Source: an uncultured Saprospiraceae bacterium (GTDB taxonomy: Bacteria > Bacteroidota > Bacteroidia > Chitinophagales > Saprospiraceae). Taken from it: DNA of 51,672 nucleotides. The notes under the pieces are model-generated. The model saw only the letters and a list, made by a program, of their open reading frames with translations, ran no database searches and was not told the origin of the DNA. How positions within the stretch are numbered: the first letter of the stretch is position 1; each line of letters starts with the position of its first letter. Of this stretch, positions 9,606 through 36,700 are shown piece after piece. The translations under genes were made by a program, and so were the position numbers. The DNA is taken from assembly GCA_937951615.1 (NCBI GenBank), contig CALFBH010000020.1, forward strand, positions 1-51,672, in the 5' to 3' direction.

Positions 9606-9690
9606 GTTTAAATTTACTGTTTGATTAAAAAATAGATTCTGTTGGTGATCTATTTCGATGTGAATAGCGGAGTGTAATACACTAAAATGG

Positions 9691-9721: not shown

Positions 9722-9737
9722 CTTTTATATAAGGGAA

Positions 9738-18441: not shown

Positions 18442-21400
18442 CTACTCCTCCATCAACTCCGTCATAACCACTTCCAAATGCCCCGCAAGCCCAGCAATTG
18501 TCGGAAATTCAAAGATTCGATTCACAGGAATCTCTAGTTCAAAGGCTTCATCAATACGTGCGGTAAGGCGAATGGCTGCAAGCGAGGTGCCGCCCAACTC
18601 CAGAAAATTATCGTGAATACCAATTTGATTGATGTTCAGTACTTCTGTCCAGATTTCGGTCAGAATTTCTTCCAGTTCATTCGTCGGCGCAGTATATTCG
18701 GTAGCGGTTTCGGGCTGCGCATGTAGGCTGGGTAGTGCAGTGCGGTCTATCTTTCCATTCGCGCTAAGCGGCAAAACATCTAAATGTCCGAACTGATTTG
18801 GAATCATATATTCCGGTAATTTTTGTGCCAGATATTGCCGGAGTTCTGCGGCAGAAATGGCTTTGCCTGTGTAGTAGGCAACCAGGCGCGGTGCTTGGTC
18901 GGTATCGCGGTCTTCATAGCCGATTTCAGCCATGATGCGTTGTACTTCTGGCACGTCAATTTCTTCATTGATTTCATCCAGCGAAGCATCACGGGTTTTG
19001 TGTCCGATGCGGACATCCCAACTATATGGAAAGGCGTAATTGCTATAACCTTGTTCTTTTTTGTGTACAAATATGCCGACTTGATTGATGAGGCAATTGG
19101 TAGAACGTCCAGTGTCGGTGGGACGCTCCCAGGGGAGGCGTTTATCTAAATATTCCAGCATTTCATCGAGGCTGACATCTGTGTAGCGATAGTAATCCAC
19201 AAACTGCACTTTTTCAAAGACGCTATCGTCTTCAAACATGGAAACATCCATTAGCTGATTGACCGCATCATTGACTTTATGATAAGCTTTTCTTGCCGTC
19301 AAAACCGTTTGGTCAATGGCTTCGATATCAACATCTTCTTTCCAAAATAATTCTTCTGTCAAACGAGTTTCAAAAAACTGACCACGGGATAAACCGGTAA
19401 CAACAAACGGAATATTTTTCTCTAAAGCAATTTGTGTACTCAGCGTATAAATGGTTTTAAAACAGCCATTACAAACATTACAATGTCGTTGTAGACTATC
19501 GACAAAAATCTCATTCATGGCAGGTGTTGAACCAAAAACATGATCGACACCCAACTCTTTGACCACCCGCCGCACATTGTCTTTTGCTTGTTCGGAAATA
19601 TAGCCATTGTCCAGTGTGAAGGCGAGGACTTTTAAGCCCATTTCTACCAGTTTACCTAGTGCGTAGCTGCTATCTTTTCCTCCACTAAGCAAAGACAGGC
19701 AATCGTAGTCACCGCCATGATTTTGCTTGGTCGCAAATAAGGCTTTCAGGTCATCTGGAGTCTTGAAATATCGCCTTGCCCGTTCCTGATAGGTTTCAAA
19801 TGAAGTACATAAATTGCAAACACCTTGTTCATCAAACTCAGCTGTAGGATAATTGGACGGAAGTCCGCACTTTATACAATTGTGTTCAGGATTATCCGCA
19901 TCTTTTTTATGCTGCTGCAAAACGACGACACAATTTTCAATATCAGGATGTGTATTCAAAACTGCTTCAATTTCACCCAACTCAATTCGTCGCCCACTGA
20001 TTTTTACCTGATAATCTATTCTGCCCAGATATTCTATGATGCCGTCTTCATTGACTCTTGCCAAATCGCCCGTGCGATACATTCGCGGACTCAAATCAGT
20101 ATATTGAGTTACAAATCTTTCAGCCGTCAAATCTGCTCGATTCCAATAATTTTCAGCCAATCCAGCACCTGAAATATACAATTCGCCAACTACACCATTG
20201 GGAACAGTATTTCCATATTTATCCAAAATAAAAATCTCCGTGTTGGCAATAGGAAGACCAATCGGAACGGAAGTTTGTGGCGTGTTTTTAGCATCAAATT
20301 GATGAACAATACAACCGACAGTTGCTTCAGTTGGTCCATATTCATTATAGATTTTCAGCTCGGCAGGAAAGGCGTTTTGTATGGCTTTCGCCAAATCGGT
20401 TTTAAAATCTTCACCACCGACAATCATCGTTTTTAGTCGAGATTCAGGATAGTTTTTTCCTTTCAATAAAGCTAAATGTGAAGGCGTCAATTTGATAAAA
20501 TCTGCCTGATTGTCTTTGATGACATCCAGAAGCGCAAGGTCTGGCCCGCTTTCACTTTCTTCATAAATAAGAGCCGTTCCACCTGAAATTAAGGGTAGAA
20601 ATAGAGATGTTACGGTGAGATCGAAACCTATGGAGGTGAAGAGTGGGATGCTTGGGCCTCGCGCGCCCCTGGCCCCTAAAGGGGAATCTCCCCTCCTAGT
20701 AAACAAGAGGGAGGATTCCCCTTTAGGGGCCAGGGGCGAGACGAGCGTCTGCAAATAAGCCCTTTCAGCCCACTGAACATAATGCCCCAAAGACTGCTGC
20801 GAAATACCAACACCTTTAGGCTGACCTGTCGAGCCAGAGGTGTACATGATGTAGGCAGTCGAGGCAGGTGACGTGGTGATGGCTTGCGCCGAAATTTGTT
20901 GTATAGTCGATTTATCCTTGTCCAGGTGGACAATTTTTTCTGTCGGATACGACAAATTTTTAGCTAAGTCCTGATGTGTGATAAGCAAAGCCGCTTCTGC
21001 GTCCTGCAACATATAATTGACTCGTTCAATCGGGTAATCTGTTGCAATGGGAATATAAGTCGCGCCAGCTTTCCAAATCGCAAGGATACTAGTCAGTAAG
21101 TCGGGTGAACGCTTGAGGTAAATGGCAATGCGGTCGCCTTGCTGCACGCCTTTTTGAATTAAATAATTGGCAAGTTGCAGGGCATTATAGTGAACTTGCT
21201 GATAAGTGAGCTTATTTCCCTTAGCGGAAATGACAATATTATTTGGGCTTTGTTTGACTTGTTGTTCAAACAAATCAAGCACTGTATTTTCTACTAGTTG
21301 GTTATCTGCTTTGCCTTGTAATCCATTGGGCGAAGCCACCAAAGAAAGCTGATGGACAGACTGAGAACGATCAGCAATAAAAGCATCCAGCAAGGCTAGG

Positions 21401-22659
21401 AAATGTGTTGAAATTTGGGCTTGAAAAGCTTTGGGAAACGGACTTTCATTGACATCAAAATACAGTTGAATATTGCCGGAGGCATCAAAATCCATGACTT
21501 GTAAACGCAGGGCATGTCCAGGGTCAGCGTGATTGGGATGCAGCCATTCTGCTGTTGCCGGAATACCATTAAAATTACCAAATTCAGCATGCACATAATT
21601 CAGTACGACATTGATGTTTCTATTGAGTTGTGGATGTGCAATGCCAGATTGCGCATTTTTCAAAAACTCAAATGCGCTTGTGCGGACTCTTTGAAATAAA
21701 GACCCAAAAGTATCGTCTTTTTGAATGCTTTCCAGCAATGGGAAAAGCTCAATAAAAACACCAGGGGTATTTTTAAAATCAGGCGTAGGGCGATTATGTG
21801 CAGGCGTGCTAATCGCAAGTTCTTGTTGCCCACTGACGCGATGGAGCCAGGCAAAAAGTACCGTGGCGAAGATGTTGAATAAGGACAAATGTTGTGTCCA
21901 GGCGCGAATATCTGCTTCTTGTGTCAACGCACGTAGTTTGGCAGAGCGTGCTTCGCCGAGGTCGCATAAAATTCGTTTGGATTGGGTAGAAGCGATGCTG
22001 TCAATAGATTTTGAAATGCCGTACAAAGTGGGAGGAGGAGGCAATGCCGCAGCTTTTTCCTGCCAGTATTGAAGGGCTTCTTGATTATTGGATCGAGCTT
22101 GTTTTTCATGACTCAAATAATCTTGAAAAGCGGGCAGGGGAGGAGCGTCTGCAAGTGTTCCATTAAGTGCGTGGCGATACAAATCGGACATCGTGCGATA
22201 TAGCACCGAGGCAGACCAGGCATCAGAAATTAGGTGGTGTTGGCTGGAATACCAGATGTATCTTTCATCGCTTATTTTTATGAGGACGGAATCGAAAAGA
22301 CAGGTAGATAAGTCGAAGTTGCGTTGATTGCGTTCTGTTGCCCAGTCTTGAAATTTTGTGTCCAGATTATCCTCCTGCGACCAGTCGAAGATTCCCATGT
22401 CATGCTGCAATTCGGACAGAATTTCCTGTTGTGGAACGCCATCTAGCATTCTAAAAACAGTACGCATTGCATCGCTCTGTTCTATCAGTTTTTGAAAGGC
22501 AATTTTGAATGCTTGAACCTGAATTTTACCTGCGAGGTCGAAGGCAAAAATCATATTATAGAGCGGTGCATTGGGCTGTATCTGTTGTCCCGTCCAGAGT
22601 AGGAGCTGGCTTTGCGTCAGGTCGTGTGTGTTAGCTTGGTTCATCTTTTCTAATTGCAT
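18442..22659 (-). CDS. NRPS, C-A(PP-loop insert)-T, predicted Asn
   Basis: A 1405-residue peptide synthetase module. The condensation domain (about 12-430) has HHLISDAW at 141-148. The adenylation domain starts near 455: A3 YTSGSTGQPKG (about 604), A5 NEYGPTEATVG (about 773), A7 YRTGDLARV (about 862), A8 QVKISGRRIELGEIE (about 883-897), A10 lysine Lys1303 in NGKIDRTAL. By hand alignment to PheA the ten-residue code is DLTKIGEVGK, the textbook asparagine code. Between A8 and A9 about 340 residues are inserted (see 18901-19917). The carrier domain has Ser1359 in LGGTSLAAI. There is no thioesterase. Between A3 and A4 a palindromic DNA element adds about 30 residues (641-665 core). It is the last gene of the minus-strand operon. 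Substrate and insert function are inferences; domain calls are firm. Confidence 0.93.
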   Translation of the reverse strand: MQLEKMNQANTHDLTQSQLLLWTGQQIQPNAPLYNMIFAFDLAGKIQVQAFKIAFQKLIEQSDAMRTVFRMLDGVPQQEILSELQHDMGIFDWSQEDNLDTKFQDWATERNQRNFDLSTCLFDSVLIKISDERYIWYSSQHHLISDAWSASVLYRTMSDLYRHALNGTLADAPPLPAFQDYLSHEKQARSNNQEALQYWQEKAAALPPPPTLYGISKSIDSIASTQSKRILCDLGEARSAKLRALTQEADIRAWTQHLSLFNIFATVLFAWLHRVSGQQELAISTPAHNRPTPDFKNTPGVFIELFPLLESIQKDDTFGSLFQRVRTSAFEFLKNAQSGIAHPQLNRNINVVLNYVHAEFGNFNGIPATAEWLHPNHADPGHALRLQVMDFDASGNIQLYFDVNESPFPKAFQAQISTHFLALLDAFIADRSQSVHQLSLVASPNGLQGKADNQLVENTVLDLFEQQVKQSPNNIVISAKGNKLTYQQVHYNALQLANYLIQKGVQQGDRIAIYLKRSPDLLTSILAIWKAGATYIPIATDYPIERVNYMLQDAEAALLITHQDLAKNLSYPTEKIVHLDKDKSTIQQISAQAITTSPASTAYIMYTSGSTGQPKGVGISQQSLGHYVQWAERAYLQTLVSPLAPKGESSLLFTRRGDSPLGARGARGPSIPLFTSIGFDLTVTSLFLPLISGGTALIYEESESGPDLALLDVIKDNQADFIKLTPSHLALLKGKNYPESRLKTMIVGGEDFKTDLAKAIQNAFPAELKIYNEYGPTEATVGCIVHQFDAKNTPQTSVPIGLPIANTEIFILDKYGNTVPNGVVGELYISGAGLAENYWNRADLTAERFVTQYTDLSPRMYRTGDLARVNEDGIIEYLGRIDYQVKISGRRIELGEIEAVLNTHPDIENCVVVLQQHKKDADNPEHNCIKCGLPSNYPTAEFDEQGVCNLCTSFETYQERARRYFKTPDDLKALFATKQNHGGDYDCLSLLSGGKDSSYALGKLVEMGLKVLAFTLDNGYISEQAKDNVRRVVKELGVDHVFGSTPAMNEIFVDSLQRHCNVCNGCFKTIYTLSTQIALEKNIPFVVTGLSRGQFFETRLTEELFWKEDVDIEAIDQTVLTARKAYHKVNDAVNQLMDVSMFEDDSVFEKVQFVDYYRYTDVSLDEMLEYLDKRLPWERPTDTGRSTNCLINQVGIFVHKKEQGYSNYAFPYSWDVRIGHKTRDASLDEINEEIDVPEVQRIMAEIGYEDRDTDQAPRLVAYYTGKAISAAELRQYLAQKLPEYMIPNQFGHLDVLPLSANGKIDRTALPSLHAQPETATEYTAPTNELEEILTEIWTEVLNINQIGIHDNFLELGGTSLAAIRLTARIDEAFELEIPVNRIFEFPTIAGLAGHLEVVMTELMEE
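18901..19917 (-). other. PP-loop amidotransferase-like domain inside adenylation domain
   Basis: This is the segment of the synthetase (residues about 915-1253) that does not belong to an adenylation domain. It opens with a zinc-ribbon pattern CIKCGLP (Cys928, Cys931) and GVCNLC (Cys948, Cys951), followed by YDCLSLLSGGKDS with the PP-loop SGGKDS at 992-997, and CNVCNGC (1060-1066). This order matches WbpG-type N-acetyl sugar amidotransferases and other adenine-nucleotide alpha hydrolases. They activate a carbonyl oxygen with ATP, releasing PPi, and add N or S. The adenylation domain resumes at RLVAYYTG. The insertion site is the same inter-motif region that hosts methyltransferases in other interrupted A domains. 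Confidence 0.85.
20664..20738. repeat. In-frame palindromic element in NRPS gene
   Basis: Perfect 25-base inverted arms (20664-20688 and 20714-20738) around a 25-base spacer lie inside the adenylation domain coding region. Read in frame it yields SPLAPKGESS ... GDSPLGARGARG, about 30 residues that interrupt the normal A3-A4 spacing. The GC content is far above its surroundings. A decayed relative may lie at 1649-1745. Confidence 0.9.
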
Positions 22660-22711: not shown

Positions 22712-22951
22712 TTATCCCTCTTTTCTTTCTGCTACATAATTCCCAATAGCTTCCACGTTCATAAAATTTTCAATCACCATGTCTGTTGGTGGTACTTTGA
22801 TTTCAAATTCTTTTTCAATAAAAGCAATCAAGCGCATCAATCCCATGGAGTCGACAAGGTTGCTGCCAAGTAAATCTTCTTGTGCTTCGAGCTTAAAATC
22901 GGGTTTGCCGATTAACTCTTTTTCGATGTAGGTGCTTATCGTATTGTTCAT
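22712..22951 (-). CDS. Free-standing peptidyl/acyl carrier protein
   Basis: A 79-residue carrier protein. The phosphopantetheine serine is in NLVDSMGLMRL (Ser35), the classic DS(M/L)-L site at the start of helix 2. The acidic helix 3 region (ENFMNVEAIGNYV) is present. It lies directly between the free-standing adenylation protein and the C-A-T synthetase on the same strand (33 and 52 base gaps). It should carry the residue loaded by the former. In pyrrole-forming systems the equivalent PltL-type protein carries prolyl and then pyrrolyl groups while the flavoprotein oxidises them; this is the favoured role here. Confidence 0.9.
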   Translation of the reverse strand: MNNTISTYIEKELIGKPDFKLEAQEDLLGSNLVDSMGLMRLIAFIEKEFEIKVPPTDMVIENFMNVEAIGNYVAERKEG

Positions 22952-24581: not shown

Positions 24582-24711
24582 GGTCGATGGTCGATAGTCC
24601 ATGGTCGATGGAAAACTACATATTTTGCATAGCAAAATGTATAGAAAAAATGGGCAGAAATTGTATTTTTATTATACAACAGCCATCGACTATCGACCAT
24701 CGACTATCGAC
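24582..24711. repeat. GTCGATGG word-repeat hairpin
   Basis: A 130-base structure between the sulfotransferase and adenylation genes. The left arm (24582-24611) and right arm (24683-24711) are built of TCGATGG/TCGATAGTC words; 24584-24604 pairs with 24683-24703 at 20 of 21 positions. The loop contains a smaller hairpin (about 24622-24650) with TATTTTGC/GCAAAATG arms. The right arm encodes the last residues (SIVDGR) and stop codon of the sulfotransferase. Confidence 0.85.
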
Positions 24712-25547
24712 TGTTTCCACTGAAATTCTTTACCCAAAAGGACAACTAATTGTTCATTTTCTTTTTCAAAATAATCTTCCAAACGCTTTACAGTATTTGG
24801 TGAAATTTTATCATATTTTCCTGGGTTTCGCTGGGACAAGTCATCAGGAAAAATAGTCGAAATTTCTAAAAATTCATAGACTTTTTCAAGTTCATTTTTA
24901 GGGTCGTGAAAGAAATTTTCGCTTTTAATAAATAAAAATTGCTCTCGTTTAAATTCTTCAAGCCAGGGGCGTAGCTGGCTGTAATATTTGCCTCTTTCGA
25001 GGTAAAATTGATTGTGCCGTTCATGACTGTAATTATTGGGATCATTGTGTTTTTCCAATGCCGCTAATTCTTGTTCAATCGCTACTTCAAAGGTGTTTTG
25101 CTCTGTGTTTCGTTTCAAGCCCATCGCGTAACCTGAATATGCCCGATCAATTGGATTACGCAACAATACAATCAACTTTACATCTGGTAGCGCCGACTTA
25201 ATTCTTTTGGCTGTTTTAGGATAAAAAAGATAAGAAGGAGTTGCTTCACCACTTATTTTTTTATTGCTACGAAATGGAAAAAAGCTTTTATACCAATTGA
25301 TACCTTTTTCATAATTCAAGTTAAAAAAATAAACTTCTTTTCTTCTTGCTAAAGCCAGTTCGGGGTGTTGATTCAAATAATAAAACAAAGAAGTCGTTCC
25401 TCCTTTTTGCGCACCTATGATGATAAAGTCAGGCAATTTTCGCCATCTGCTAGTTGCCATTCGATAGGTAGAAATAGCTTTTTTTCTGTACTTTCTCCAA
25501 TACTTTTTCGTACCTGCTATAATGTATTTTGAACTTGATTTTTTCAT
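24690..25547 (-). CDS. PAPS-dependent sulfotransferase
   Basis: A 285-residue enzyme that transfers sulfate from PAPS to a hydroxyl or amine. The 5'-phosphosulfate loop is IIIGAQKGGTTSLFYYL (about 42-58) and the 3'-phosphate site LLRNPIDRAYSGYAM (about 129-143). A basic N-terminus (KKSSSKYIIAGTKKYWRKYRKK) precedes the domain. The family includes heparan/NodH-like and natural-product sulfotransferases. Its start overlaps the stop of the flavoprotein gene by one base (TAATG), so it belongs to the biosynthetic operon and probably sulfates the peptide product or its precursor. The C-terminal six residues come from a repeat element, so the ancestral end may have been lost. Confidence 0.88.
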   Translation of the reverse strand: MKKSSSKYIIAGTKKYWRKYRKKAISTYRMATSRWRKLPDFIIIGAQKGGTTSLFYYLNQHPELALARRKEVYFFNLNYEKGINWYKSFFPFRSNKKISGEATPSYLFYPKTAKRIKSALPDVKLIVLLRNPIDRAYSGYAMGLKRNTEQNTFEVAIEQELAALEKHNDPNNYSHERHNQFYLERGKYYSQLRPWLEEFKREQFLFIKSENFFHDPKNELEKVYEFLEISTIFPDDLSQRNPGKYDKISPNTVKRLEDYFEKENEQLVVLLGKEFQWKQSIVDGR

Positions 25548-26701
25548 TATAATCCCAAAAAACGGGCAATAATATTGCGTTGAATATCAGATGTGCCTGC
25601 GTACAAAACACCGCCTACCGCATCTCGCAGGTCGCGCTCAATGCCAAAATCTGTCAAATAGCCATTGCCACCGTGTATTCTTATGCTGTCCAGACTAGAC
25701 GTTACAAAACTTTCGCCGAGGTGCAGTTTTAGCATGGCACCTTCAAGCATAGAAGGCATATCGTTTTTTTTCAGCCAAGCCATTTTGTATAATAATAACC
25801 TGGAGGTCTCATGTCGCAACTTCATGTCTGCAATTCGATTAGAAACGGATTGAAATTTACTAATAGGCTGTCCGTATTGTTCTCTTTGTTTGGCGAAAGC
25901 CACTGCTTCTTCTATCTGTCTTTCCATCGCACCTAACTTGCCAGCTAAGATACAACAACGATCGTATTCTAGTGAATGATTGGAAATACTAAAACCTGCG
26001 CCCTCTTTGCCCAGCCTGTTTTCTTCAGGGACAAAACAGTTGTCAAATTTGATTTCACCGAGCGGAACAGTGCGAAGTCCCATCTTATGCCGAGCCGGGC
26101 TGGGTTGGTAGCCACGCATTGTCTTATCTACAATAAATGCCGTAACGCCCCACTTCCCACGTTCTGGATATACATTGGCGAAAGCCACCGCTACATCGGA
26201 AATAGGGGCGAGGGTGACGAGTCGTTTTTCTCCATTGAGAACATAACCGCCTTCTACTTTCTCGGCAGTCATCTTCATATTGAAGACATCCGAACCAGAA
26301 GTTGTCTCTGTGAGGGCATGTGCGCCAATCCATTCTCCACTTGCCATTTTGGGCAGGTATTTTTGTTTTTGTGCTTCTGTGCCGAATAGGTTAATGGACA
26401 TTTGCACTGCCCACATGTGCGCATTGAGCGCGATGCCGAGTCCATTATCCTTGCAAGCGTAGCCAAAACCTTCCATGGCATAAGCAGCACGTAGAACGTC
26501 GACTTCTTCGTAAGTTCCACCATATTTGGCAGGTGCAGCGAGTCCTTGTAATCCGAATTTTCCGCATTTATCCCATAAATCTCTGGGGAAAGTGCCTGCG
26601 TGATCGCGTTCTATCAAGCTGTCGTCATTGAGTTCGCTTTTGGCAAATTCGATGACTTTATTTCTATAATCAGTATATTCCTGTGGGAAAGAAAAATCCA
26701 T
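25547..26701 (-). CDS. Acyl-CoA dehydrogenase-like flavoprotein, prolyl-PCP oxidase candidate
   Basis: A 384-residue FAD enzyme of the acyl-CoA dehydrogenase fold. Present are the ALTETTSGSD substrate/FAD motif (about 130), GEKRLVT, the helix with LEYDRCCILAGKLGAM (about 241) and the C-terminal RIHGGNGYL and GTSDIQRNIIARFLGL. The usual catalytic glutamate of the YEGT motif is alanine here (YAGTSDIQ). An acidic residue in the LEYDR helix lies where isovaleryl-CoA dehydrogenase keeps its base. Shift or loss of the YEGT base is compatible with aminoacyl-PCP dehydrogenases. In the operon with an A protein, a PCP and ornithine cyclodeaminase, oxidation of prolyl-PCP to pyrrolyl-PCP is the best inference. 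A plain acyl-CoA substrate cannot be excluded. Confidence 0.85.
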   Translation of the reverse strand: MDFSFPQEYTDYRNKVIEFAKSELNDDSLIERDHAGTFPRDLWDKCGKFGLQGLAAPAKYGGTYEEVDVLRAAYAMEGFGYACKDNGLGIALNAHMWAVQMSINLFGTEAQKQKYLPKMASGEWIGAHALTETTSGSDVFNMKMTAEKVEGGYVLNGEKRLVTLAPISDVAVAFANVYPERGKWGVTAFIVDKTMRGYQPSPARHKMGLRTVPLGEIKFDNCFVPEENRLGKEGAGFSISNHSLEYDRCCILAGKLGAMERQIEEAVAFAKQREQYGQPISKFQSVSNRIADMKLRHETSRLLLYKMAWLKKNDMPSMLEGAMLKLHLGESFVTSSLDSIRIHGGNGYLTDFGIERDLRDAVGGVLYAGTSDIQRNIIARFLGL

Positions 26702-26712: not shown

Positions 26713-28926
26713 TTAAAATTGGTATTGAATACTGCCTTTTATAAAAATAGGCGTACCTGGTGTAAAATGAATTTCTTCTATAGGCTCTAATTCATTGAAT
26801 AAACGCGATTCTGTAGCGAATTGCGTTTCATTCCATGCTACATTGAATAGATTTTCGACATTGATGCCGAGTCGTAATCTCTTCCATCGATAGGATGTAT
26901 TCAAGTCAATGATGTTATAACCTTTTGCTATAATACTGTTATCTTCAGTGGCTGCTCGGTCGCCTAGATGACGAAATTGAATCCCTGCTGAAAACGCATC
27001 TTTGCGAACATTTAGTCCACCTGTGGCCGTGAGTACAGGCGCGAGTGGAATGTAAGCAGCATCGTCAGGTTCTTCTATCGAACGCGCCAAAGTGTACGTC
27101 AAATCCGCGTCTGCAAATAACCAATCGAATACTTGGTGGCGAATGTCCAAATCAATGCCAAGCCTTCTGGTTTTGCCGCTAGGCTCTACCACGCCTTCAT
27201 CGCCGACATACACAAATTCTTGTTCCAGAAACAAATACCAGAAGGCAGTATTGACCACGGTTCTTCTGGTCGGTTTCCAAATCGCTCCAAGATCTGCACC
27301 ATAGGCTAAGGGCAAAATATCTTTTTTGTCTGTATCTAAAACTAAGCGGGTATCATTGGAATGAAAACCTGTACCCATTTTGAAAAAGAACTGAAGACTT
27401 CTGTTTTGATTATAAATAATATTCAGATTTGGCGTAGCCATCCATTTTGACTGTGATTGAGTGCTGTATAATGAATCTAAAGCATTGACATAGTTGAACT
27501 TAAAATAATCTATTCTTAGTCCTGGATTGATGAGCAAATTACCCAATTCAAATTCAGAATTAAGGTAAGCATATAGATTGGATTCATCTATATCTCCAAG
27601 CTGAATATTGGAGAGCGTGGTCTTGCGATTGAGCGTGCGAGAAAGCTCGTTATCATCACTATTGTCATATCGAAATCCAATGGCTGCCTGTAATAGTGTT
27701 TCTCCTTTTTTGGTGTCTAGAACATGATTCCATTCACTTACTGCACCAAATATCTGTCTTTGTTCGTACTGTCTGATTTGATCGCCATTGATGGGGTCAT
27801 TTAGGAAAAAAGTAAAATTGGAATACAATTCAAAGTCATACAAAGAATAGAATAATCTATTTTTTATAAATGTATTTTTATCAATATTTTTATTCAAACT
27901 GACTGCAATATTAGTCCGTCCAGTATGCCCGCCTTCCGTGTCATCAATTGCTCCAAATCGGCTGATTGCACCCTCTTCTACCATGCGATTGGGAATTTGC
28001 CCGGAGGCATCCCATCGACTATCGAAATGTGAAATGAGTATTGATAATTTATCTAGATTATCGAATTGAGCAGTGTATTTACCCATCAGATTCAGGCGAC
28101 TAAAGTTCTGTGGGGATTCAAAAGGCCCATCGGACAACATATATTCAGCAGCCACATAAGCATTATGTTCTTCAGATTGGAGCAAATTGAATAAAGCTAC
28201 ATTTCTAAGGGTATTAAAACGCCCGGCTTCTATGCTAAATAAATTGTTTTCTAAGCCTTCTTTGAGTTGAAAGTCTACATAACCAGCAGTTGCAAAATTG
28301 CCTTTGTCTGCATAATAAGGACCTTTACCAAAATCAATTTTTTTAATGGTCTCAGGAATAACAAAATGCAGATCGGCATAACCCTGCCCATGCGCATGAG
28401 AAACCATATTGACAGGAAGCCCGTCAGCCGTTATCGTAATGTCGGTACCATGGTCGATGTCGAAGCCCCGCAGGAAGATTTGCTCGGCTTTGCCACCGCC
28501 TGCATGTTGTCCGATAAAGAGTCCCGGAACTTTACGAAGGATTTCCTGGGAAGAATTGACCGGATTGGTTTTGAGGTCTATGTCAGAAATGAAGTTAATA
28601 GATTTTACATCTTGACCAATAACAATCTGATCCAGTTCAAACGTAGCAACAGTCATGCTGATTTCCAGTTTTTTGTTGATGTCTTGAATGACAATTTGCT
28701 CCGCTTCAAAACCAAAAAAAGAAACCTGAATAGTGTCGCCTGACTGGATAGGACTCAGGTTAAATGTACCATTATCCTTTGTGTGGGTGTGATTGTCGGA
28801 CGAAGTATGTACGACATAAACACCAGGCAGGGGCAACTGATAATTGTCCAGAATAACTCCCTGAAGCGACTGTGTGTAACCAAATACTGGGAGTAAAAGA
28901 AGTGTAATAAATAGGAAGGTTCTCAT
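26713..28926 (-). CDS. TonB-dependent outer-membrane receptor
   Basis: A 737-residue receptor with signal peptide MRTFLFITLLLLPVFGYTQS, a carboxypeptidase-like regulatory domain (about 21-105; LQGVILDNYQLPLPGVYVV), a plug (about 110-230) and a 22-strand barrel ending in QYQF. The plug carries a His-rich stretch (NMVSHAHGQGYADLHF) and the IFLRGFDIDHGTD motif. It lies inside the biosynthetic operon, 9 bases after ornithine cyclodeaminase and 11 bases before the flavoprotein, which suggests uptake of the finished compound or of a metal complex of it. The substrate is not determinable from sequence. Confidence 0.9.
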   Translation of the reverse strand: MRTFLFITLLLLPVFGYTQSLQGVILDNYQLPLPGVYVVHTSSDNHTHTKDNGTFNLSPIQSGDTIQVSFFGFEAEQIVIQDINKKLEISMTVATFELDQIVIGQDVKSINFISDIDLKTNPVNSSQEILRKVPGLFIGQHAGGGKAEQIFLRGFDIDHGTDITITADGLPVNMVSHAHGQGYADLHFVIPETIKKIDFGKGPYYADKGNFATAGYVDFQLKEGLENNLFSIEAGRFNTLRNVALFNLLQSEEHNAYVAAEYMLSDGPFESPQNFSRLNLMGKYTAQFDNLDKLSILISHFDSRWDASGQIPNRMVEEGAISRFGAIDDTEGGHTGRTNIAVSLNKNIDKNTFIKNRLFYSLYDFELYSNFTFFLNDPINGDQIRQYEQRQIFGAVSEWNHVLDTKKGETLLQAAIGFRYDNSDDNELSRTLNRKTTLSNIQLGDIDESNLYAYLNSEFELGNLLINPGLRIDYFKFNYVNALDSLYSTQSQSKWMATPNLNIIYNQNRSLQFFFKMGTGFHSNDTRLVLDTDKKDILPLAYGADLGAIWKPTRRTVVNTAFWYLFLEQEFVYVGDEGVVEPSGKTRRLGIDLDIRHQVFDWLFADADLTYTLARSIEEPDDAAYIPLAPVLTATGGLNVRKDAFSAGIQFRHLGDRAATEDNSIIAKGYNIIDLNTSYRWKRLRLGINVENLFNVAWNETQFATESRLFNELEPIEEIHFTPGTPIFIKGSIQYQF

Positions 28927-28935: not shown

Positions 28936-30045
28936 TCATTCTTTGTGCTTATAAATAACCTCTCTAAGCGTAAGGATTTCAATAGGTATTTCCTGCATGA
29001 AGGCATAAGGATTCTTAGCGTCTTCAGATATGTTTTCAATCTCAATCAGCTGGCCAAGTCTAAGTTCTTCTGCATATTCCAAAAACAACTGCATGACGGT
29101 TTGGTCTTCCAATGCCCAGCCTGTAGAATCAAATACACTAAGTTCTTGTCGAACGAATGCGTACTTTTCTTTATCCTGTAAAACCTGAATCCAATCTGCA
29201 TCAATGTCTTTTGCTTGAAGTTGTTGACATTCCCCTTCTATAACTGCTTGTGACCTGAAGTCGGGACATACAAAACTGTTCTGTAGATGTTCTAATGGCA
29301 ATTCTGTTTTGCCAGGAAAGTCAGATCCAACAGCATTAATATGTAAATGTGCTTGAGTTGCCATTGGTTTGAAAAGCGGGCCTTCACCCACATCAATCGA
29401 AGTAGCAGTAGATACAATATCAGCCGTTTGTATAATTTCTTCAATACTGGAAGGAATAATTTCTATCTCCAGATGAAGTGCGGCACAGCGTTGTCTAAAA
29501 GACATCATTGCAGAAGCATCTTTATCGTAAAGGAGGACTTTTTTAAAATTGAAAACACGAGAGAGCGCGTGCAATTGTGTAATAGATTGTGCCCCACAAC
29601 CAATCAAGCCCAGGGTAGAAGAATCGGGATGTGCCAGCAATCGACTGGCTACAGCAGAAGATGCTCCAGTACGCAAAGCAGTGGGCAATACGCCATCCAT
29701 AAGTCCATGCAAATGACCAGTGCTGGTATCATAAGATGAAATAGTAGAAAGGATAGTAGGTAGTCCTTGTGCAGTTGGATTATCTGGATGATAGCCTACA
29801 ACTTTTATGACAACATCTTTGCCTTTTTCATACAAAGGCATCCATTCCACGAGTCCGACGGAAGGTTTCTTATAATTAAATCCTGCTCTTATCGGGATGA
29901 TAGTTTTTGAAGGATTAAATTTTTCAAGTGCGTTTGTCAGTCGCTCAATCAGGGCGTCCATTACTTCGTTCAGCCCTTTTTGCCGCACGATTTCCTGCAC
30001 GTCATTACTAGATAAAACCAAAGTTTTATTCGTTTTCATATTCAT
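28936..30045 (-). CDS. ocd: Ornithine cyclodeaminase/mu-crystallin family enzyme
   Basis: A 369-residue NAD(P)-dependent enzyme. The substrate half has VEWMPLYEK and the YDTSTGHLHGLMDG region. The Rossmann part begins LGLIGCGAQSITQLHAL (about 145-161), and the catalytic region NAVGSDFPGKTEL (about 238-250) keeps the aspartate. The family turns ornithine into proline plus ammonia, lysine into pipecolate, or acts as alanine/opine-type dehydrogenase (SbnB). As first gene of the operon leading to a free-standing A protein, PCP and flavoprotein, supply of proline (or a ring homologue) is likely. No SbnA-like partner is present. Start ATG 30045 or 30039. The divergent gap to the exporter (30046-30252) shows no exact promoter box. 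Confidence 0.85.
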   Translation of the reverse strand: MNMKTNKTLVLSSNDVQEIVRQKGLNEVMDALIERLTNALEKFNPSKTIIPIRAGFNYKKPSVGLVEWMPLYEKGKDVVIKVVGYHPDNPTAQGLPTILSTISSYDTSTGHLHGLMDGVLPTALRTGASSAVASRLLAHPDSSTLGLIGCGAQSITQLHALSRVFNFKKVLLYDKDASAMMSFRQRCAALHLEIEIIPSSIEEIIQTADIVSTATSIDVGEGPLFKPMATQAHLHINAVGSDFPGKTELPLEHLQNSFVCPDFRSQAVIEGECQQLQAKDIDADWIQVLQDKEKYAFVRQELSVFDSTGWALEDQTVMQLFLEYAEELRLGQLIEIENISEDAKNPYAFMQEIPIEILTLREVIYKHKE

Positions 30046-30312: not shown

Positions 30313-32034
30313 ATGGCGGTGCTGGTCATGGCAATTTTTGAAGTCATTGGCATTGCTTCAGTTCTTCCTTTCATGCAAATTGCCTCAAAACCAGAAAAGA
30401 TTGCTGAAAATCAGGTCTTAAGTAAGGTTTATCAAGTGCTGGGATTTGAAACTAGTCAGGACATGCTGATTGCTTCGGGCGTATTGGTACTGGTCTTGAT
30501 TACAGTGTCGAATCTATTTAAAGCTTTTACAAGTTGGCTACAACAAAAGTTTGCCTGGGATGTGGCACATCAATTGGGTACTCGTTTGTTGAGGGTTTAT
30601 TTAGGAAAACCTTACGGTTATTTTTTAACACATAATACCTCAGAATTATTGACCAATCTGATTGTTGAAGCGGGGAAAATAACAACAGGAATTTTAATCC
30701 CATTGGGAGAACTTATTGCGCAAATTGTTGTTTCTACTCTTATTTTTGGGCTTTTATTATACGTAAATCCGTTTATAGCACTGGTGACTCTGGCTGTATT
30801 AGGAACAGCTTATGGACTGGTTTATTTTGCTCGAAAACGTTATCTGACCCGCTTGGGCAAAGAACGGGTTTCTGCAAATCAGTACCGTTTCCGAAGTTTA
30901 AAAGAAACGCTGGCAGGCATTAAAACTTTTCGGGTATATGGCGTGCAGGATTTTTTTTATCGCCGTTTTGAAAAAGTATCTGAACACCATAGTACGATAC
31001 AGCCACGCGTATATCTTGTGTCTGCTTTACCTCGGCATGTGATTGAAATTTTTGCTTTTGGAGGCGTAGTTCTTGTGCTTTTATTTTTGATTTTAAACGG
31101 ACAAAATCTACAGGACGTTCTGCCTTTATTGACTTTATATGTGCTGGCAGGTTATCGTTTGTTACCTGCTTTGCAAAAAATATTTTCATCGGCTATAAAA
31201 ATCAGACATACGCTTCCCGCAGTGGATATATTGCGAGCAGATTTACAGGAAACTGCGGAACTTCAAGGCGAACTGCCCATAGAACATCCTATTGCCAATT
31301 TTGCTCAGGCTATGGTGATGGATAATATTGGATTTTATTATGACAACACCACTGAACCTGTTATTGCAGAGCTGACCGTAAGTATTCCAAAAGGAAAAAC
31401 AGTAGCCTTTGTCGGTTCAACTGGATCAGGAAAAACAACTTTGGTAGATTTGATTGTCGGTTTACTTCATCCACAAGAAGGGAATATTCGAATTGATGAA
31501 AAAATATTAGATATAGATAATGCGAGAAGCTGGCAACAACAAATTGCCTATGTACCACAGGAAGTATTTTTATTTGACGATACGGTTACCCGAAATATAG
31601 CGATTGGCTTAAATGACGATGAAGTCGATCAGGCACGACTGGAAAAGGCTGCGAGTATAGCAAATGTGCATGATTTTATTAGTACTGAATTAACGGACGG
31701 CTATGAGACAGTCATTGGAGAGCGCGGTGTAAGACTGAGCGGCGGACAGCGACAGCGACTAGGATTAGCACGGGCTTTATATCGACATCCCAATGTCCTG
31801 ATTCTTGATGAGGCAACAAGCGCATTAGATAGCATCACTGAACATGCAGTTATTGACGCACTAAGAGAAAGTACAAAAGACTTGACCATCATTGTCATCG
31901 CTCACAGATTATCAACAGTACGCCATGCAGATTGTATTTATCTACTAGAACATGGTCGCCTGGTAGCAGAAGGTTCTTATGAAGAATTATTCAAGCAAAG
32001 CGATATGTTCCGTGAAATGGTCGAATTGAGTTGA
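30313..32034 (+). CDS. ABC exporter, fused permease-ATPase
   Basis: A 573-residue half transporter. Six transmembrane helices span about 1-290. The ATPase part has Walker A GSTGSGKTT (about 371), Q-loop YVPQEVFLFDD, signature LSGGQRQRLGLARALY (about 477), Walker B VLILDEATSALD and H-loop IVIAHRLSTVRH. It resembles PglK/MsbA-like and peptide exporters. The first ATG with support is 30313, but homology-like sequence continues upstream in the same frame to 30253 (ATC AAA AAA TTA TTA..., reading KKLLSILTDAEQRRFRWLQ) without any ATG, GTG or TTG. The true start may be non-canonical. It diverges from ornithine cyclodeaminase and heads the second biosynthetic unit, so it probably exports the peptide. 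Confidence 0.9.
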   Translation: MAVLVMAIFEVIGIASVLPFMQIASKPEKIAENQVLSKVYQVLGFETSQDMLIASGVLVLVLITVSNLFKAFTSWLQQKFAWDVAHQLGTRLLRVYLGKPYGYFLTHNTSELLTNLIVEAGKITTGILIPLGELIAQIVVSTLIFGLLLYVNPFIALVTLAVLGTAYGLVYFARKRYLTRLGKERVSANQYRFRSLKETLAGIKTFRVYGVQDFFYRRFEKVSEHHSTIQPRVYLVSALPRHVIEIFAFGGVVLVLLFLILNGQNLQDVLPLLTLYVLAGYRLLPALQKIFSSAIKIRHTLPAVDILRADLQETAELQGELPIEHPIANFAQAMVMDNIGFYYDNTTEPVIAELTVSIPKGKTVAFVGSTGSGKTTLVDLIVGLLHPQEGNIRIDEKILDIDNARSWQQQIAYVPQEVFLFDDTVTRNIAIGLNDDEVDQARLEKAASIANVHDFISTELTDGYETVIGERGVRLSGGQRQRLGLARALYRHPNVLILDEATSALDSITEHAVIDALRESTKDLTIIVIAHRLSTVRHADCIYLLEHGRLVAEGSYEELFKQSDMFREMVELS

Positions 32035-32080: not shown

Positions 32081-32177
32081 CATTTTTGTAAAGTTTATTC
32101 AGTTATTTAACTAAAATCAATAAGACCGAAGCCCCAACTGTTCTCAGTGTTTTAGAGACAAATTCGAATTGCACCCC

Positions 32178-32212
32178 TTTAAACTTAAACTTAATCTTAT
32201 ACTTAAACTTAT
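32178..32212 (+). repeat. TTTAAACTTAAACTT leader repeat, copy 2
   Basis: A 35-base run of CTTAAA words ending 10 bases before the ATG at 32223. It matches 14397-14431 (reverse strand) at 33 of 35 bases, in the same orientation and nearly the same distance from the start codon. Confidence 0.75.
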
Positions 32213-32222
32213 TTACGACACG

Positions 32223-33512
32223 ATGAAAACCTATTTGAAAATCCTTGCAGCGTTTATGCTGTTACTATTGATTGTTATGCCTTTCTCTCTGGAGGCACAT
32301 GCACCCGATCAGACTTACCTATATGTCAGAGTTTATCAAGAACGCATAGAATGTACGGTTGAGATTAAGTTGGAAGACCTCAATAAGGCATTAAACCTAA
32401 ACATAGACCCGAAAAAATACGCACCTGAAAGTGATGAAGATGAAGGACTACAGCCTTTACCGGAAGAACTCAAAATCTACCGTGCGCAAGTAGAAGCTTA
32501 TGTTCTGGAAAGAGTGGGCATCAGCTCACCAAAATACGGAAAACATGCCTTTAAATTCATGGAACCTGAGTTGCTTTTATTGGAAATGGGGGTGTATTGG
32601 GAAACAAAATTTGAACTCGAAAATGTACAAGACATACCCGATGCATTAGATATTCGCTACGAAGTAATGTTTGATGTTGATCCAATACAGCGAGGAATGA
32701 CAGTGGTCGGACATAACTGGAAAGCCGGTATTGTCAATAACGAATCTATGACTGCGCTTGTATTTTCACCAGGAGACACACAACAACAACTTTCACTGAC
32801 CGATGCTTCGCTTTGGAAAGGCTTTAAAGCGATGGTGGGATTGGGCATGTGGCATATCTGGATTGGTTTGGATCACATCCTGTTTCTGGTGGCTTTAGTG
32901 CTGCCCTCGGTCGTGCGCCGGCGCAGGAAGGAAGGCGAGCTTGCCCTCTCCCAAACCTGGACGCCTGTAGAGAGCTTCAAGTCTGCTTTCTTTTATATTT
33001 TGAAAATTGTCACCCTGTTTACCATTGCGCATAGTATTACACTCAGTCTGGCAGCTTTGGGAATCATTGACCTGTCTTCCCGGATTGTAGAGTCTATCAT
33101 TGCTTTGTCTATTGCACTAGCAGCTTATCTGAATCTTCGCCCTTTGTTCAACCGAAGCGAGTCCTTCATCGCTTTTGCTTTTGGGCTGTTTCACGGCTTG
33201 GGTTTTGCCAGTGTACTGGGCGAAAAAGGCTTAGGGGGAGAATACATGACTTTGTCCTTATTAGGTTTCAATGTAGGGGTAGAACTCGGACAAATCCTGA
33301 TTATCTGCATGGTTTTCCCATTTCTATTTTTGCTACGCCGAACGAAACTTTATCCCTACATCATTTTCTACGGTTCTATTCTGCTTATCATCATCGCTTT
33401 CTATTGGTTTGTTGAACGTTTCTTTGAAATCAACCTGTTAGCAGATGATTATATCAGTTGGTTCTGGAGAAAATCGACCAATAAGATTATGCACCTAATT
33501 GGACTTAAATAA
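32223..33512 (+). CDS. HupE/UreJ-family membrane protein
   Basis: A 429-residue protein. The ATG at 32223 gives a clean signal peptide (MKTYLKILAAFMLLLLIVM ... LEAHA); an upstream in-frame ATG at 32169 would begin inside a DNA repeat. Residues 25-205 are an extracytoplasmic beta-rich domain. From about 215 seven helices carry the family signatures HIWIGLDHILFL, FTIAHSITLSLAALG and LFHGLGFASVLGEKG. HupE/UreJ proteins move nickel or cobalt for hydrogenase or urease. The long N-terminal domain version is widespread in Bacteroidota without such enzymes and its cargo is unclear. It lies between exporter and synthetase genes, so a metal link for the product is possible but unproven. Confidence 0.85.
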   Translation: MKTYLKILAAFMLLLLIVMPFSLEAHAPDQTYLYVRVYQERIECTVEIKLEDLNKALNLNIDPKKYAPESDEDEGLQPLPEELKIYRAQVEAYVLERVGISSPKYGKHAFKFMEPELLLLEMGVYWETKFELENVQDIPDALDIRYEVMFDVDPIQRGMTVVGHNWKAGIVNNESMTALVFSPGDTQQQLSLTDASLWKGFKAMVGLGMWHIWIGLDHILFLVALVLPSVVRRRRKEGELALSQTWTPVESFKSAFFYILKIVTLFTIAHSITLSLAALGIIDLSSRIVESIIALSIALAAYLNLRPLFNRSESFIAFAFGLFHGLGFASVLGEKGLGGEYMTLSLLGFNVGVELGQILIICMVFPFLFLLRRTKLYPYIIFYGSILLIIIAFYWFVERFFEINLLADDYISWFWRKSTNKIMHLIGLK

Positions 33513-33692: not shown

Positions 33693-33724
33693 AAATTCCA
33701 AAATAGGACATCTTTGGAATTTGG
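33691..33724. promoter_or_regulatory. Perfect 12-bp hairpin upstream of NRPS gene
   Basis: CCAAATTCCAAA (33691-33702) and its exact complement (33713-33724) flank a 10-base loop and end 28 bases before the synthetase ATG. Two further TGGAATT words follow (33722-33745). It could be an operator, a leader hairpin, or another example of the local word repeats. Confidence 0.5.
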
Positions 33725-33752
33725 AATTTATTTTTTTGGAATTTTAAAAGAT

Positions 33753-36700
33753 ATGCCAACAGACAAGCCGGATATATCAGCCAATAAAAACCTGGCTTTG
33801 GAGCGGTGGCGCAATCGCAAAAAAAAAGCACAGCCACAGGGTATTCAGCGAATGCCAGAAGGGGAGGATTGCCCGCTTTCTTATGGACAGCAACGACTTT
33901 GGTTTTTACAACAATTATATCCAGGGAATCCATTTTATAATTATTCAGAAAGCTACCGCTTACGCGGAAAATTGAATACTGCTCACCTGATACAGGGCTT
34001 GGAATATGTCGCGCGTCGCCACGATATGTTGCGCACCCGTTTTGAAGTGCGAGATGGTCAGGCAATTCAATTGGTAGAAGATACCATACAATTTGAAAAA
34101 GCTGACTTCGATTTGCAGCATCTGCCAGAATTGGAACGTGAAGCAGCGGCACAAAAAATCATATTTGCAGAAGCAGAAAAATCTTTTGAGCTAACTGCTG
34201 GTCCGCTTACGCGAATCACTTTGATTCGACTAGCAGAAAACGACCATATTCTTGCACTGACCATGCACCACATCATCACCGACAAATGGTCTATGCGAGT
34301 GCTGCGGGAAGAATTGGCAACAGCTTATCAGGCATTGCAAGCAGGAGAAACATTGCCCAATCAGTCACTCAAGATTCAATATGCCGATTACGCTTATTGG
34401 CAAAGAAACCAGCAAGTCGATGAAAAACACCTAGCTTACTGGACGAAAAAATTAGAAGGCGAATTGCCTGTTTTAAAACTGCCCACTGACCGTAATCTAC
34501 CCGTGCGTCCGTCCTTCAAAGGAGCTTATGCGACACAGCCCTTATCACTCGAATTGTCCCGGCAGTTGAAAACGCTGAGTCAACAATCGAACACGACTTT
34601 ATTTGTCTTATTATTGACTGCCTACAAAGTATTATTGCATCGTTATTCAGGGCAAGAAGATATTTTGGTGGGAACACCTTTTACCAATCGAGATAAAAAA
34701 GAACTAGAACAGCTTATTGGCTTTTTTAATGACACCCTGGTCTTGCGTAGCGACTTGTCCGACAATCCAACTTTTCTGGAAGTAGTCGAGCAGGTTAGGA
34801 CGACTGTTTTAGAAGGTTTTTCTCATAAAAATACGCCTTTTGAAACCTTGGTTAAAACACTACAACCGGAACGGAGTGGACGAGGAAATCCCTTGTTTCA
34901 GGTCATGTTTTTATACCATAATGTAGCACCGACACCAGTGTTTAATGCTGATTTAGATTTGCAGCATGAACCCTTTGATTTAGGCGTAGCCAAGTTTGAT
35001 CTGACGCTCTACATTGCAGAAGATAAAGAACAGCTTACCGCAATATTTGAATATGCAAAAGACCTGTTTGATGAGACAACTATCGATCGAATGCAGGCGC
35101 ATTTGCAGACTTTATTGCAGGGCATCGTTGATAATCCAAAGGCAAGAATAGCCGATTTACCCATTTTGCCAGCCGCAGAACGTCAGTTGATTTTACAGGA
35201 CTGGAATAGCGCTACATTTGATACGGGAAGTGCTCAGTCGATTATTGAATTATTTGAACAACAAGTTCGCGAACAGCCAGATAAGATTGCCGTCATCGCC
35301 GATGGAAGCCAGCTGAACTATCAGCAATTGAGTGAAAAGGTGAATGCGATTGCTGGACGATTGCGCGATATGGGTATTGGTTCTAACATTGATGAAGTCT
35401 TGCTTCGCAAAAGCGGTGGGTTTAAACCCACCGCTTTTGCGAAGCAAGTGGATTCGAGCAATTCCGTCGGTCTATTCGTCGGACGCTCCACAGACATGAT
35501 GGCGGGCATATTGGGCATCATGAAAGCAGGTGCGGCTTATGTGCCACTCGACCCGGAATATCCAGCGGAGCGTATTGAGTTCATGCTGGAAGATGCAGCA
35601 GTTTCAGTGGTATTGACGCAAGAGAAATTACAGGAGCGTTTGCCGAAAACAAAAGCGCAAATACTCACTTTTGAGTCTATAGAATATACAGGCGCAAACA
35701 TTGATTATCTTCCTGCTTCTGCTGATTTAGCGTACATCATTTACACTTCTGGCAGTACAGGAAAACCAAAAGGCGTACCCGTAACGCATAAAAATTTGCT
35801 TCACTCTACACGGGCTCGTTTTGAATATTATCCCAAACATCCAGGCTGCTTTTTGCTGATGTCTTCTTTCTCCTTTGACAGTTCGGTCGCAGGTATATTC
35901 TGGACAATGGCAAGCGGCGGAGCTTTACTGATTCCTGAACGACGAATTGAACAAGATACGAATAGACTGGCAGAAATTATTGCAGAACACAGCGTTACGC
36001 ACACACTGCTATTGCCGTCTCTATATGAGGTTTTATTGAAATATGCCTCACAGGAAAAACTAAGTTCACTGAATACCGTCATGGTCGCTGGCGAGGCTTG
36101 CCCAGCTTCTTTGTGCGATCTTCATTACGATACTTTGCCAGATGCCATTTTGTACAACGAATATGGACCAACAGAAGCAAGTGTTTGGTGTACCGTCCAT
36201 GAAATCACAAGAGCAGATGCAAGGGGAGCAGTTCCCATCGGCCGCCCGACTGCCAATGCTGAAATCTATATTTTAAACCGAAATTTGCAGCCTGTTCCTA
36301 TTGGCGTAGCAGGCGAATTATATGTCGGTGGAAGTGGTGTTACGCAAGGCTATCTAAACCGTCCTGAACTGACTCAAACCCGATTCCTAAATAATCCTTT
36401 CTCCAAAAATCCTGATGCCCTGATATATCATACGGGCGATTTGGCGCGCTTTCGCGCAAATGGGGTGATAGAATTTCTTGGACGTGCAGATCAGCAGGTG
36501 AAAATCAGAGGATATCGCATCGAACCAGATGAAATCAGAGAAGTTCTGAAAAGACATGAATCCGTTCGTGATGCTGTGGTAACTGTACAGAAAAATAAAA
36601 AACGATTGATATCCTATCTTATTGTAAATGAAGGATTTGAAGTGAGTAAATTAAGGCTTTACACGAAGCAGCAATTGCCAGACTATATGGTGCCTGCTTT

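What the first reader, a model, noticed from the sequence alone, without database searches (positions are those of the whole stretch)
18442..22659. Asn-type NRPS adenylation domain interrupted by a PP-loop amidotransferase-like domain
Seen: between A8 (QVKISGRRIELGEIE) and the resumption at RLVAYYTG lie about 340 residues with CIKC/CNLC zinc-ribbon pairs, SGGKDS and CNVCNGC. Known: this order is that of WbpG-type N-acetyl sugar amidotransferases in the PP-loop ATP pyrophosphatase superfamily, members of which make amidines, thioamides, lysidine or thiouridine by adenylating a carbonyl oxygen. A-domain interruptions described so far that I know of are mostly methyltransferases, with some oxidoreductases. 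Seen: the hand-read code DLTKIGEVGK equals the asparagine code. Inference: the insert modifies the side-chain amide of carrier-bound Asn to thioamide, amidine or nitrile. No glutaminase partner is visible, so the N or S donor is open.
Basis: partly seen in the sequence, partly recalled or inferred. Interest (0 to 1): 0.93.

Follow-up and report, generated by a model that had tools for sequence, protein, structure and literature searches.

The report
Asparagine-to-nitrile domain inside an NRPS
A peptide-making enzyme carries, inside its asparagine-selecting part, a second ATP-using enzyme that most likely turns the bound asparagine into a nitrile; the arrangement is already known from cystobactamid and albicidin, but its spread and its conserved cysteine sites are informative.

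Summary
ORF 18442-22659 (-) is an intact C-A-T NRPS module with code DLTKIGEVGK. Its A domain is interrupted between A8 and A9 by about 340 residues with a PP-loop (AANH) fold. It is no chimera: all 80 loci kept from a genome-contig scan (169 confirmed) carry it, from record titles of seven phyla.

The interpretation needs correcting. This kind of domain is known: the AMDH (aminomutase/amide dehydratase) domain of cystobactamid CysH and albicidin AlbIV, reported in Asn-type A domains (PMC7966384, PMC12283262; passages and parts). In vitro the CysH domain dehydrates carrier-bound Asn to beta-cyanoalanine. No CysJ-type hydroxylase was found near, so a nitrile is the likeliest product. It is not a WbpG-type sugar amidotransferase: below that family's cut-off, no HisH neighbour seen, outside that clade.

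Possibly new: all 83 aligned inserts share a CxxC...C triad spaced much like the Fe-S site of CtaC, which could explain the brown colour of CysH. The cluster looks like that of a His-containing metallophore; carrier, HupE/UreJ and TonB genes recur beside most copies. Same-genus genome G003 appears to have lost the insert cleanly.

The parts
18442..22659 (-). NRPS module C-A[AMDH-type insert]-T, 1405 aa
21334..22629 (-). Condensation domain (residues 11-442), HHLISD motif
19924..21270 (-). Adenylation domain up to A8 (residues 464-912), code DLTKIGEVG
   Evidence: Pfam start 464; TIGR01733 stretch 485-912; code by alignment
18901..19917 (-). PP-loop (AANH / AMDH-type) insert, about residues 915-1253
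   Evidence: TIGR03573 117 bits; model and fold search
19807..19878 (-). tetracysteine CxxC (928, 931) and CxxC (948, 951), zinc-ribbon type as in 8wex
   Evidence: present in 83, 83, 82 and 83 of 83 aligned inserts; zinc in 8wex: PMC10607449 passages
19669..19686 (-). SGGKDS ATP-pyrophosphatase loop
   Evidence: Asp and Ser in 83 of 83 aligned inserts
19462..19473 (-). CNGC: conserved Cys1063 and Cys1066, first two of the CxxC...C triad
   Evidence: 83 of 83 aligned inserts; spacing
19093..19095 (-). Cys1189 (STNCLIN), third Cys of the triad
   Evidence: 83 of 83 aligned inserts
18751..18909 (-). A-domain C-terminal subdomain resumes, with A10 Lys1303
18475..18666 (-). carrier (T) domain, GGTSL
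22712..22951 (-). stand-alone carrier protein, 79 aa
22985..24565 (-). stand-alone A domain, code DIMYLGVQCK
24690..25547 (-). sulfotransferase-family protein
25547..26701 (-). acyl-carrier-protein dehydrogenase, closest solved relative prolyl-ACP dehydrogenase 4irn
26713..28926 (-). TonB-dependent receptor
28936..30045 (-). cyclodeaminase; nearest solved relatives are lysine cyclodeaminases
30313..32034 (+). ABC exporter
32169..33512 (+). membrane protein with HupE/UreJ_2 domain
33714..40811 (+). second NRPS (3 condensation-type stretches, A, 2 T, TE), A code DSALMAEVW, His-like
   Evidence: His assignment of DSALIAEVWK from PMC12283262
11838..12566 (-). 4'-phosphopantetheinyl transferase (HetI-like)

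Best explanation
The insert is an AMDH-type domain, of the kind found in CysH and AlbIV. The A domain selects L-Asn and loads it on the T domain. The carrier-bound Asn then visits the PP-loop domain, which uses ATP (SGGKDS) to activate the side-chain amide oxygen, probably as an adenylate. Loss of AMP gives carrier-bound beta-cyano-L-alanine. The C domain joins it to the acyl group made by the stand-alone A, carrier and dehydrogenase set (a cyclic imino acid, proline or pipecolate type), and the chain passes to the second, His-type NRPS. Shown here: architecture, Asn code, PP-loop fold, conserved residues, spread. Shown by others on CysH: dehydration of bound Asn to beta-cyanoalanine, with some isomerisation to iso-Asn. 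Inferred: that this copy does the same, adenylation as the mode of activation, an Fe-S cluster on the CxxC...C triad, and the identity of the neighbouring residues.
For: Same position (A8-A9), same superfamily, similar size (about 340 aa; 342 aa in AlbIV) and a code that matches the known case (PMC12283262; PMC7966384, whose authors report that the homologues found by BLAST all sit in Asn-type A domains and that SGGKD is highly conserved in the 25 closest). Code DL[TS]K[IV]GE[VI]G in 86 of 88 aligned rows, the other 2 being fragments without that region. CysH in vitro: minus 18 Da on loaded Asn, not seen when the domain is deleted. No TauD-family (CysJ-type) match in the window's genome; 5 of 17 searched genomes or records have one, none on a contig that carries the module (several of these assemblies are in many contigs). 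CysH made beta-cyanoalanine when CysJ was absent. No nitrogen or sulfur donor was seen: no HisH-like ORF in 93 loci plus the window, and none among 10 neighbour ORFs of six loci scanned.
Against: No sequence of CysH or AlbIV was held, so homology to them was not measured here. The CxxC...C triad is spaced much as in the thioamide synthetase CtaC, which would favour sulfur chemistry. Five of 44 aligned standalone relatives also have the triad (a sixth, L175, by eye), and three of those (L140, L160, L163) sit beside a HisH-like ORF, so the triad alone tells neither nitrile, thioamide nor amidine. In CysH without CysJ, iso-Asn and unchanged Asn were found as well as the nitrile.
Confidence: 0.72

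Rival explanations
1. The domain acts chiefly as an aminomutase, giving iso-asparagine on the carrier; dehydration is a side reaction.
For: The CysH domain does both, and iso-Asn still formed without CysJ (PMC7966384).
Against: In CysH the iso-Asn/Asn linker ratio fell six- to eight-fold without the hydroxylase, and none was found near here. Albicidin has the nitrile linker and no iso-Asn form is known.
Confidence: 0.12
2. Thioamide synthetase: an embedded CtaC-like domain that swaps oxygen for sulfur on the Asn side chain or on the new peptide bond.
For: Triad spacing: second to third Cys 121-123 residues in 83 inserts, against 127 from CtaC residue numbers C157 and C284. CtaC acts on carrier-bound substrates with an Fe-S cluster. 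LarE, TtuA and YcfA are near in fold.
Against: This kind of domain has a demonstrated dehydratase activity in CysH, in a mixture without added sulfide. No sulfur-relay gene was seen. Most CtaC homologues are in anaerobes, while many hosts here are marine aerobes (recalled from their genus names).
Confidence: 0.08
3. Amidine synthesis, as by WbpG-type enzymes, perhaps followed by ring closure to a 4-aminopyrimidine as in bleomycin (recalled), since a His-type module follows.
For: Nearest solved fold is a sugar amidotransferase; shared zinc tetracysteine; Asn followed by His-type modules.
Against: HisH-like ORF in 0 of 93 interrupted loci plus window; own genome has no HisH above cut-off; separate group from the sugar enzymes.
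Confidence: 0.05
4. A vestigial or structural insert without catalysis.
For: Genome G003 of the same genus lacks it and keeps an uninterrupted A domain with the Asn code.
Against: SGGKDS Asp and Ser and the triad are invariant in 83 of 83 aligned inserts; 131 invariant columns among nine inserts of one family.
Confidence: 0.03

Closest known systems
CysH AMDH domain (cystobactamid), PMC7966384
   Same: PP-loop (SGGKD) domain of 38 kDa inserted in an Asn-specific A domain; acts on carrier-bound Asn.
   Different: CysH is a stand-alone loading module with CysJ, CysQ and CysB partners; here the module is C-A-insert-T inside a different cluster, with no CysJ-type hydroxylase found. Identity to CysH was not measured here.
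AlbIV insertion (albicidin), as described in PMC12283262 and PMC7966384
   Same: 342-aa AANH insertion; the code DLTKIGEVGK is said to be compatible with beta-cyanoalanine, which that paper found only in albicidin.
   Different: Different product class and host; no TonB receptor or His-type module mentioned in the passages read.
CtaC thioamide synthetase (closthioamide), PMC6772006
   Same: PP-loop protein acting on carrier-bound substrate; three Cys with similar spacing; Fe-S cluster.
   Different: Stand-alone; makes backbone thioamides; CtaC sequence not compared here.
TIGR03573 WbuX / N-acetyl sugar amidotransferase (8wex, WbpG)
   Same: Fold, SGGKDS and N-terminal zinc tetracysteine.
   Different: Insert is below the family cut-off. 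38 of 44 standalone relatives lack the triad (one of the 44, L139, is an AsnB-like neighbour ORF picked by my pattern), as does 8wex in the aligned part. No HisH neighbour seen for the insert.
LarE and TtuA [4Fe-4S] sulfur insertases
   Same: PP-loop plus CXXC-C cluster motif (PMC9283937 passages).
   Different: Act on a nucleotide cofactor precursor or tRNA; third Cys nearer (LarE residue numbers give 76).
Methyltransferase-interrupted A domains (TioS, KtzH; solved 5wmm)
   Same: Insertion between a8 and a9 leaving a working A domain (PMC11355689 passages; 5wmm appears).
   Different: SAM-dependent methylation by an unrelated inserted fold.

Membership tests
AMDH domain (CysH/AlbIV kind) | inserted in an A domain with Asn code | tested here: met
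   literature statement
AMDH domain (CysH/AlbIV kind) | AANH/PP-loop domain of about 340 aa with SGGKD | tested here: met
AMDH domain (CysH/AlbIV kind) | sequence kinship with CysH/AlbIV (69% to each other) | not tested
AMDH domain (CysH/AlbIV kind) | dehydrates or isomerises carrier-bound Asn | not testable with these tools
   needs enzyme assay
WbuX / N-acetyl sugar amidotransferase | score above TIGR03573 cut-off (203.2 bits) | tested here: not met
   117.1 bits
WbuX / N-acetyl sugar amidotransferase | zinc tetracysteine CxxC..CxxC | tested here: met
   definition from PMC10607449
WbuX / N-acetyl sugar amidotransferase | HisH-type glutaminase beside it | tested here: not met
   0 of 93 loci plus window versus 34 of 52 loci of standalone relatives
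WbuX / N-acetyl sugar amidotransferase | falls inside the clade | tested here: not met
   24 inserts form one group (SH-aLRT 88); 44 standalone relatives are set off by a branch of 95; quick tree, midpoint root, long branches flagged
[4Fe-4S] PP-loop enzymes (TtuA/LarE/CtaC) | PP-loop plus CxxC...C triad | tested here: met
   definition
[4Fe-4S] PP-loop enzymes (TtuA/LarE/CtaC) | bound iron-sulfur cluster | not testable with these tools
   CysH was dark brown on purification, which is consistent
Interrupted A domain (a8-a9) | A core motifs kept on both sides of the insert | tested here: met
   A10 Lys in 85 of 88 rows (3 rows end before it); A3 and A7 motifs in the commonest variants printed

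The most novel reading that the evidence does not exclude
AMDH domains are [4Fe-4S] PP-loop enzymes of the TtuA/LarE/CtaC type that have been turned from sulfur insertion to amide dehydration and amine shifting. The cluster's open iron site would hold the amide or nitrile nitrogen while ATP activates the oxygen. This would explain the brown colour of CysH, left open by its authors, who report looking for a CxxCxxxC motif. In this lineage the domain makes a cyanoalanine unit for an unknown His-containing, probably metal-binding peptide, made from Bacteroidota to Acidobacteriota and Roseobacter plasmids.
Probability: 0.45. Interest if true: 0.65.

Novelty: new member of a known kind. Interest (0 to 1): 0.42.

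Why it matters
The domain kind is known but, by the CysH paper of 2021, its mechanism was not. Its authors could not crystallise or model it, saw a brown protein and found no iron-sulfur motif of the type they looked for. The alignment here gives a short list of residues to mutate (SGGKDS Asp and Ser; Cys1063, Cys1066, Cys1189; the zinc cysteines) and a structural frame (PP-loop, TtuA/LarE-like), so the question becomes directly testable. G003 offers a natural deletion of the domain to compare. The cluster family is a wide source of predicted nitrile peptides for which I found no assigned product.

Tried and rejected
Considered and set aside: assembly chimera (same fusion in all 80 kept loci); WbpG-type amidotransferase; thioamide synthetase, which was my leading idea until one search showed the AlbIV case and the CysH paper; bleomycin-like aminopyrimidine (no amidine source seen). 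I first read the starter set as pyrrole-forming; the cyclodeaminase proved closest to lysine cyclodeaminases, so pipecolate and proline both stay open.

Led nowhere: of ten literature searches, six named no case of this insert in what they listed; three of them returned no paper, and 85 returned the CtaC paper again. One search gave the review used; two searches gave the CtaC, 8wex and LarE papers. The known case surfaced only through the specificity code. A metallophore-mining paper has no mention of HupE, pyrrole, thioamide, Bacteroidota or copper in its main text. CysH was out of reach, so the decisive alignment is missing. I thought of the albicidin gene as a yardstick and did not fetch it.

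Results against my reading kept in view: three triad-bearing standalone proteins (L140, L160, L163) lie beside a HisH-like ORF; iso-Asn is also a CysH product.

Counting notes; 88 rows = 80 genome-contig loci, window, L179 and six genome-search loci; one of these (L011) is the same locus as L115; two fragments show no code; 83 inserts = 80 loci, window, L179, L157; 82 are distinct. The 93 interrupted loci are L010-L022 and L046-L125; six are the same place under two ids and some are fragments. The 52 standalone loci come from TIGR03573 searches (31) and an insert-profile search (21); nine gave no PP-loop ORF by my pattern, and L183 was added, giving 44; L139 turned out to be an AsnB-like neighbour ORF. 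One search left out four short rows and the duplicate L011. One search kept 80 of 169 confirmed relatives; the other 89 were not seen.

Full report
What is there. ORF 18442-22659 (-), 1405 aa, is a C-A-T module. The A domain matches TIGR01733 up to residue 912 and resumes at about 1251. Between them lie about 340 residues with a zinc-ribbon-like tetracysteine, SGGKDS, and a CxxC...C triad. The insert hits WbuX TIGR03573 at 117 bits, below its cut-off, and more weakly LarE, QueC and ArgG models. A model from nine inserts (mean pLDDT 81.1) matches PP-loop proteins: sugar amidotransferase 8wex first, then TtuA, YcfA, LarE. A model of A-insert-T from 38 sequences (pLDDT 86.5, pTM 0.63) matches NRPS modules, including the methyltransferase-interrupted A domain 5wmm.

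Not an artefact. Of 199 genomes of the same family, 24 have a match to the protein at E 1e-100 or better; these include interrupted homologues and uninterrupted C-A-T relatives. A genome-contig scan confirmed 169 relatives and kept 80; all 80 carry the PP-loop in one frame with NRPS sequence. Record titles name Bacteroidota, Balneolota, Acidobacteriota, Actinomycetota, Cyanobacteriota, Planctomycetota and Gemmatimonadota (many are MAGs, whose labels can be wrong). Plasmids of Roseovarius and Pseudohalocynthiibacter hold it too. In sampled genomes it is uncommon: among 395 genomes of the phylum, window's included, 2 have it in a long frame, and 3 of 396 in the phylum of G838.

Specificity. By alignment the code is DLTKIGEVGK in 74 of 88 rows. 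The rest are DLSKIGEVGK 5, DLTKIGEIGK 3, DLTKVGEVGK 1, DLTKIGEVG with the last position missing 3, and 2 fragments without the region. PMC12283262 (passages) discusses DLTKIGEVGK in its Asp/Asn section and notes that it is also compatible with beta-cyanoalanine. Uninterrupted relatives in the same kind of cluster read Ser-like (DVWHFSL.; the Ser label is recalled) in L026-L028 and DVPHFSLVEK in L024. L023 from same-genus genome G003 reads DLTKIGEVGK with no insert and no TIGR03573 match in the genome. In a tree of the C-A-T without the insert, L023 pairs with an interrupted member (SH-aLRT 99) inside the interrupted group. I read this as a clean loss, a natural counterpart of the CysH deletion experiment.

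What it is. PMC12283262 states that the cyanoalanine-activating domain of albicidin AlbIV has a 342-aa AANH insertion. PMC7966384 (abstract, passages and parts 2 and 3 of 8 of its main section read) describes the AMDH domain of CysH: inserted in the module, 69% identical to the AlbIV domain, with SGGKD, and with homologues all in Asn-type A domains. CysH plus Asn gave minus 18 Da on the carrier; CysH without the domain did not. With hydroxylase CysJ the domain instead isomerises. The present insert meets the two features of this kind that I could test; kinship by sequence and activity I could not. I therefore read it as an AMDH-type domain. Since no TauD-family hydroxylase is in the window's genome nor on the module's contig in the other 16 genomes or records searched, beta-cyanoalanine is the likeliest product.

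Not a sugar amidotransferase. Of 52 loci of standalone relatives, 34 have a HisH-like ORF nearby; of 93 interrupted loci plus the window, none (flanks differ in length, and some loci are short). The window's genome has no HisH above cut-off. In a quick tree, 24 inserts group together (88). The Streptomyces L180 domain, standalone L196 and L183 fall outside the group of standalone relatives, which is set off by a branch of 95 (the tool flagged several long branches).

The cysteine triad. All 83 aligned inserts have it, spaced 67/3/121-123 from the PP-loop Asp. In CtaC, cluster mutants were C154, C157, C284 with ATP-site D77 (parts 1-2 of 3 of PMC6772006 read), that is 77/3/127. LarE shows the same CXXC-C logic (PMC9283937 passages). 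Solved sugar enzyme 8wex lacks it in the aligned part. CysH was dark brown and its authors, finding no CxxCxxxC motif, set a radical mechanism aside. A TtuA-type cluster is therefore a plausible, testable cofactor. Against over-reading: five of 44 standalone relatives also carry the triad by alignment (a sixth by eye), three of them beside a HisH-like ORF.

The cluster. Next to the module: carrier protein, A domain (DIMYLGVQCK), dehydrogenase nearest prolyl-ACP dehydrogenase 4irn (E 2.8e-118), cyclodeaminase nearest lysine cyclodeaminase 5gzi (8.6e-93; ornithine cyclodeaminase 1u7h 2e-38), TonB receptor, HupE/UreJ_2 protein, and a second NRPS with code DSALMAEVW. DSALIAEVWK is a His code in PMC12283262; A domains of 28 other loci share the pattern DS...AEVW. 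Among the 60 kept loci of at least 16.9 kb: carrier 58, TonB 50, HupE-like 47, stand-alone A 44, second NRPS 38, dehydrogenase 27, cyclodeaminase 23 (flanks of 8 kb limit these counts). The Roseovarius plasmid has a compact form: A, methyltransferase, dehydrogenase, carrier, HupE/UreJ and a C-A[insert]-T-C-A-T-TE protein. I infer a starter of cyclic imino acid type, then modified Asn, then His, and an uptake receptor: probably a metallophore. This is inference only.

Verdict. Observation confirmed; interpretation partly right; kind already known; mechanism hint and cluster family worth following.

Noticed in passing
20662-20742 (-): An 81-base in-frame near-perfect palindrome (27 residues) sits inside the A domain between A3 and A4, absent from the aligned relatives; a 101-base stretch over it folds at -78 kcal/mol (z -10.5) and the genome holds it at three places. 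It may slow translation or weaken this copy's A domain.
   Followed up: partly
L023 (G003), 8555-11755: Same-genus module without the insert but with the Asn code; nested among interrupted ones, so read as a loss.
   Followed up: yes
L180, 12083-16133: Streptomyces sp. NBC_01216 plasmid: an uninterrupted A-T protein, then a separate PP-loop plus partial condensation domain protein with the same triad, downstream of asnB: a free-standing version of the domain. Its A code, hand-read DARHASLMTK, is not Asn-like.
   Followed up: partly
L196 (G1225): Standalone 344-aa PP-loop protein with the triad and STNCLLN in the phylum of G838, next to a 464-aa protein of unknown role.
   Followed up: no
L140, L160, L163: Sugar-amidotransferase-like proteins beside a HisH-like ORF that carry CxxC...C; whether they bind a cluster is unknown.
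   Followed up: no
window 33714-40811: The second NRPS has three condensation-type stretches, two carriers and a thioesterase but seemingly one A domain, so one carrier may lack its own A domain.
   Followed up: no
G000 genome: No HisH above cut-off in a genome rated 100% complete, although its cluster has a His-type A domain.
   Followed up: no
window 24690-25547: Sulfotransferase-family gene inside the cluster, seen in few relatives (1 of 80, L046, which is L010; also L014, L015, L023 and, weakly, L028).
   Followed up: no
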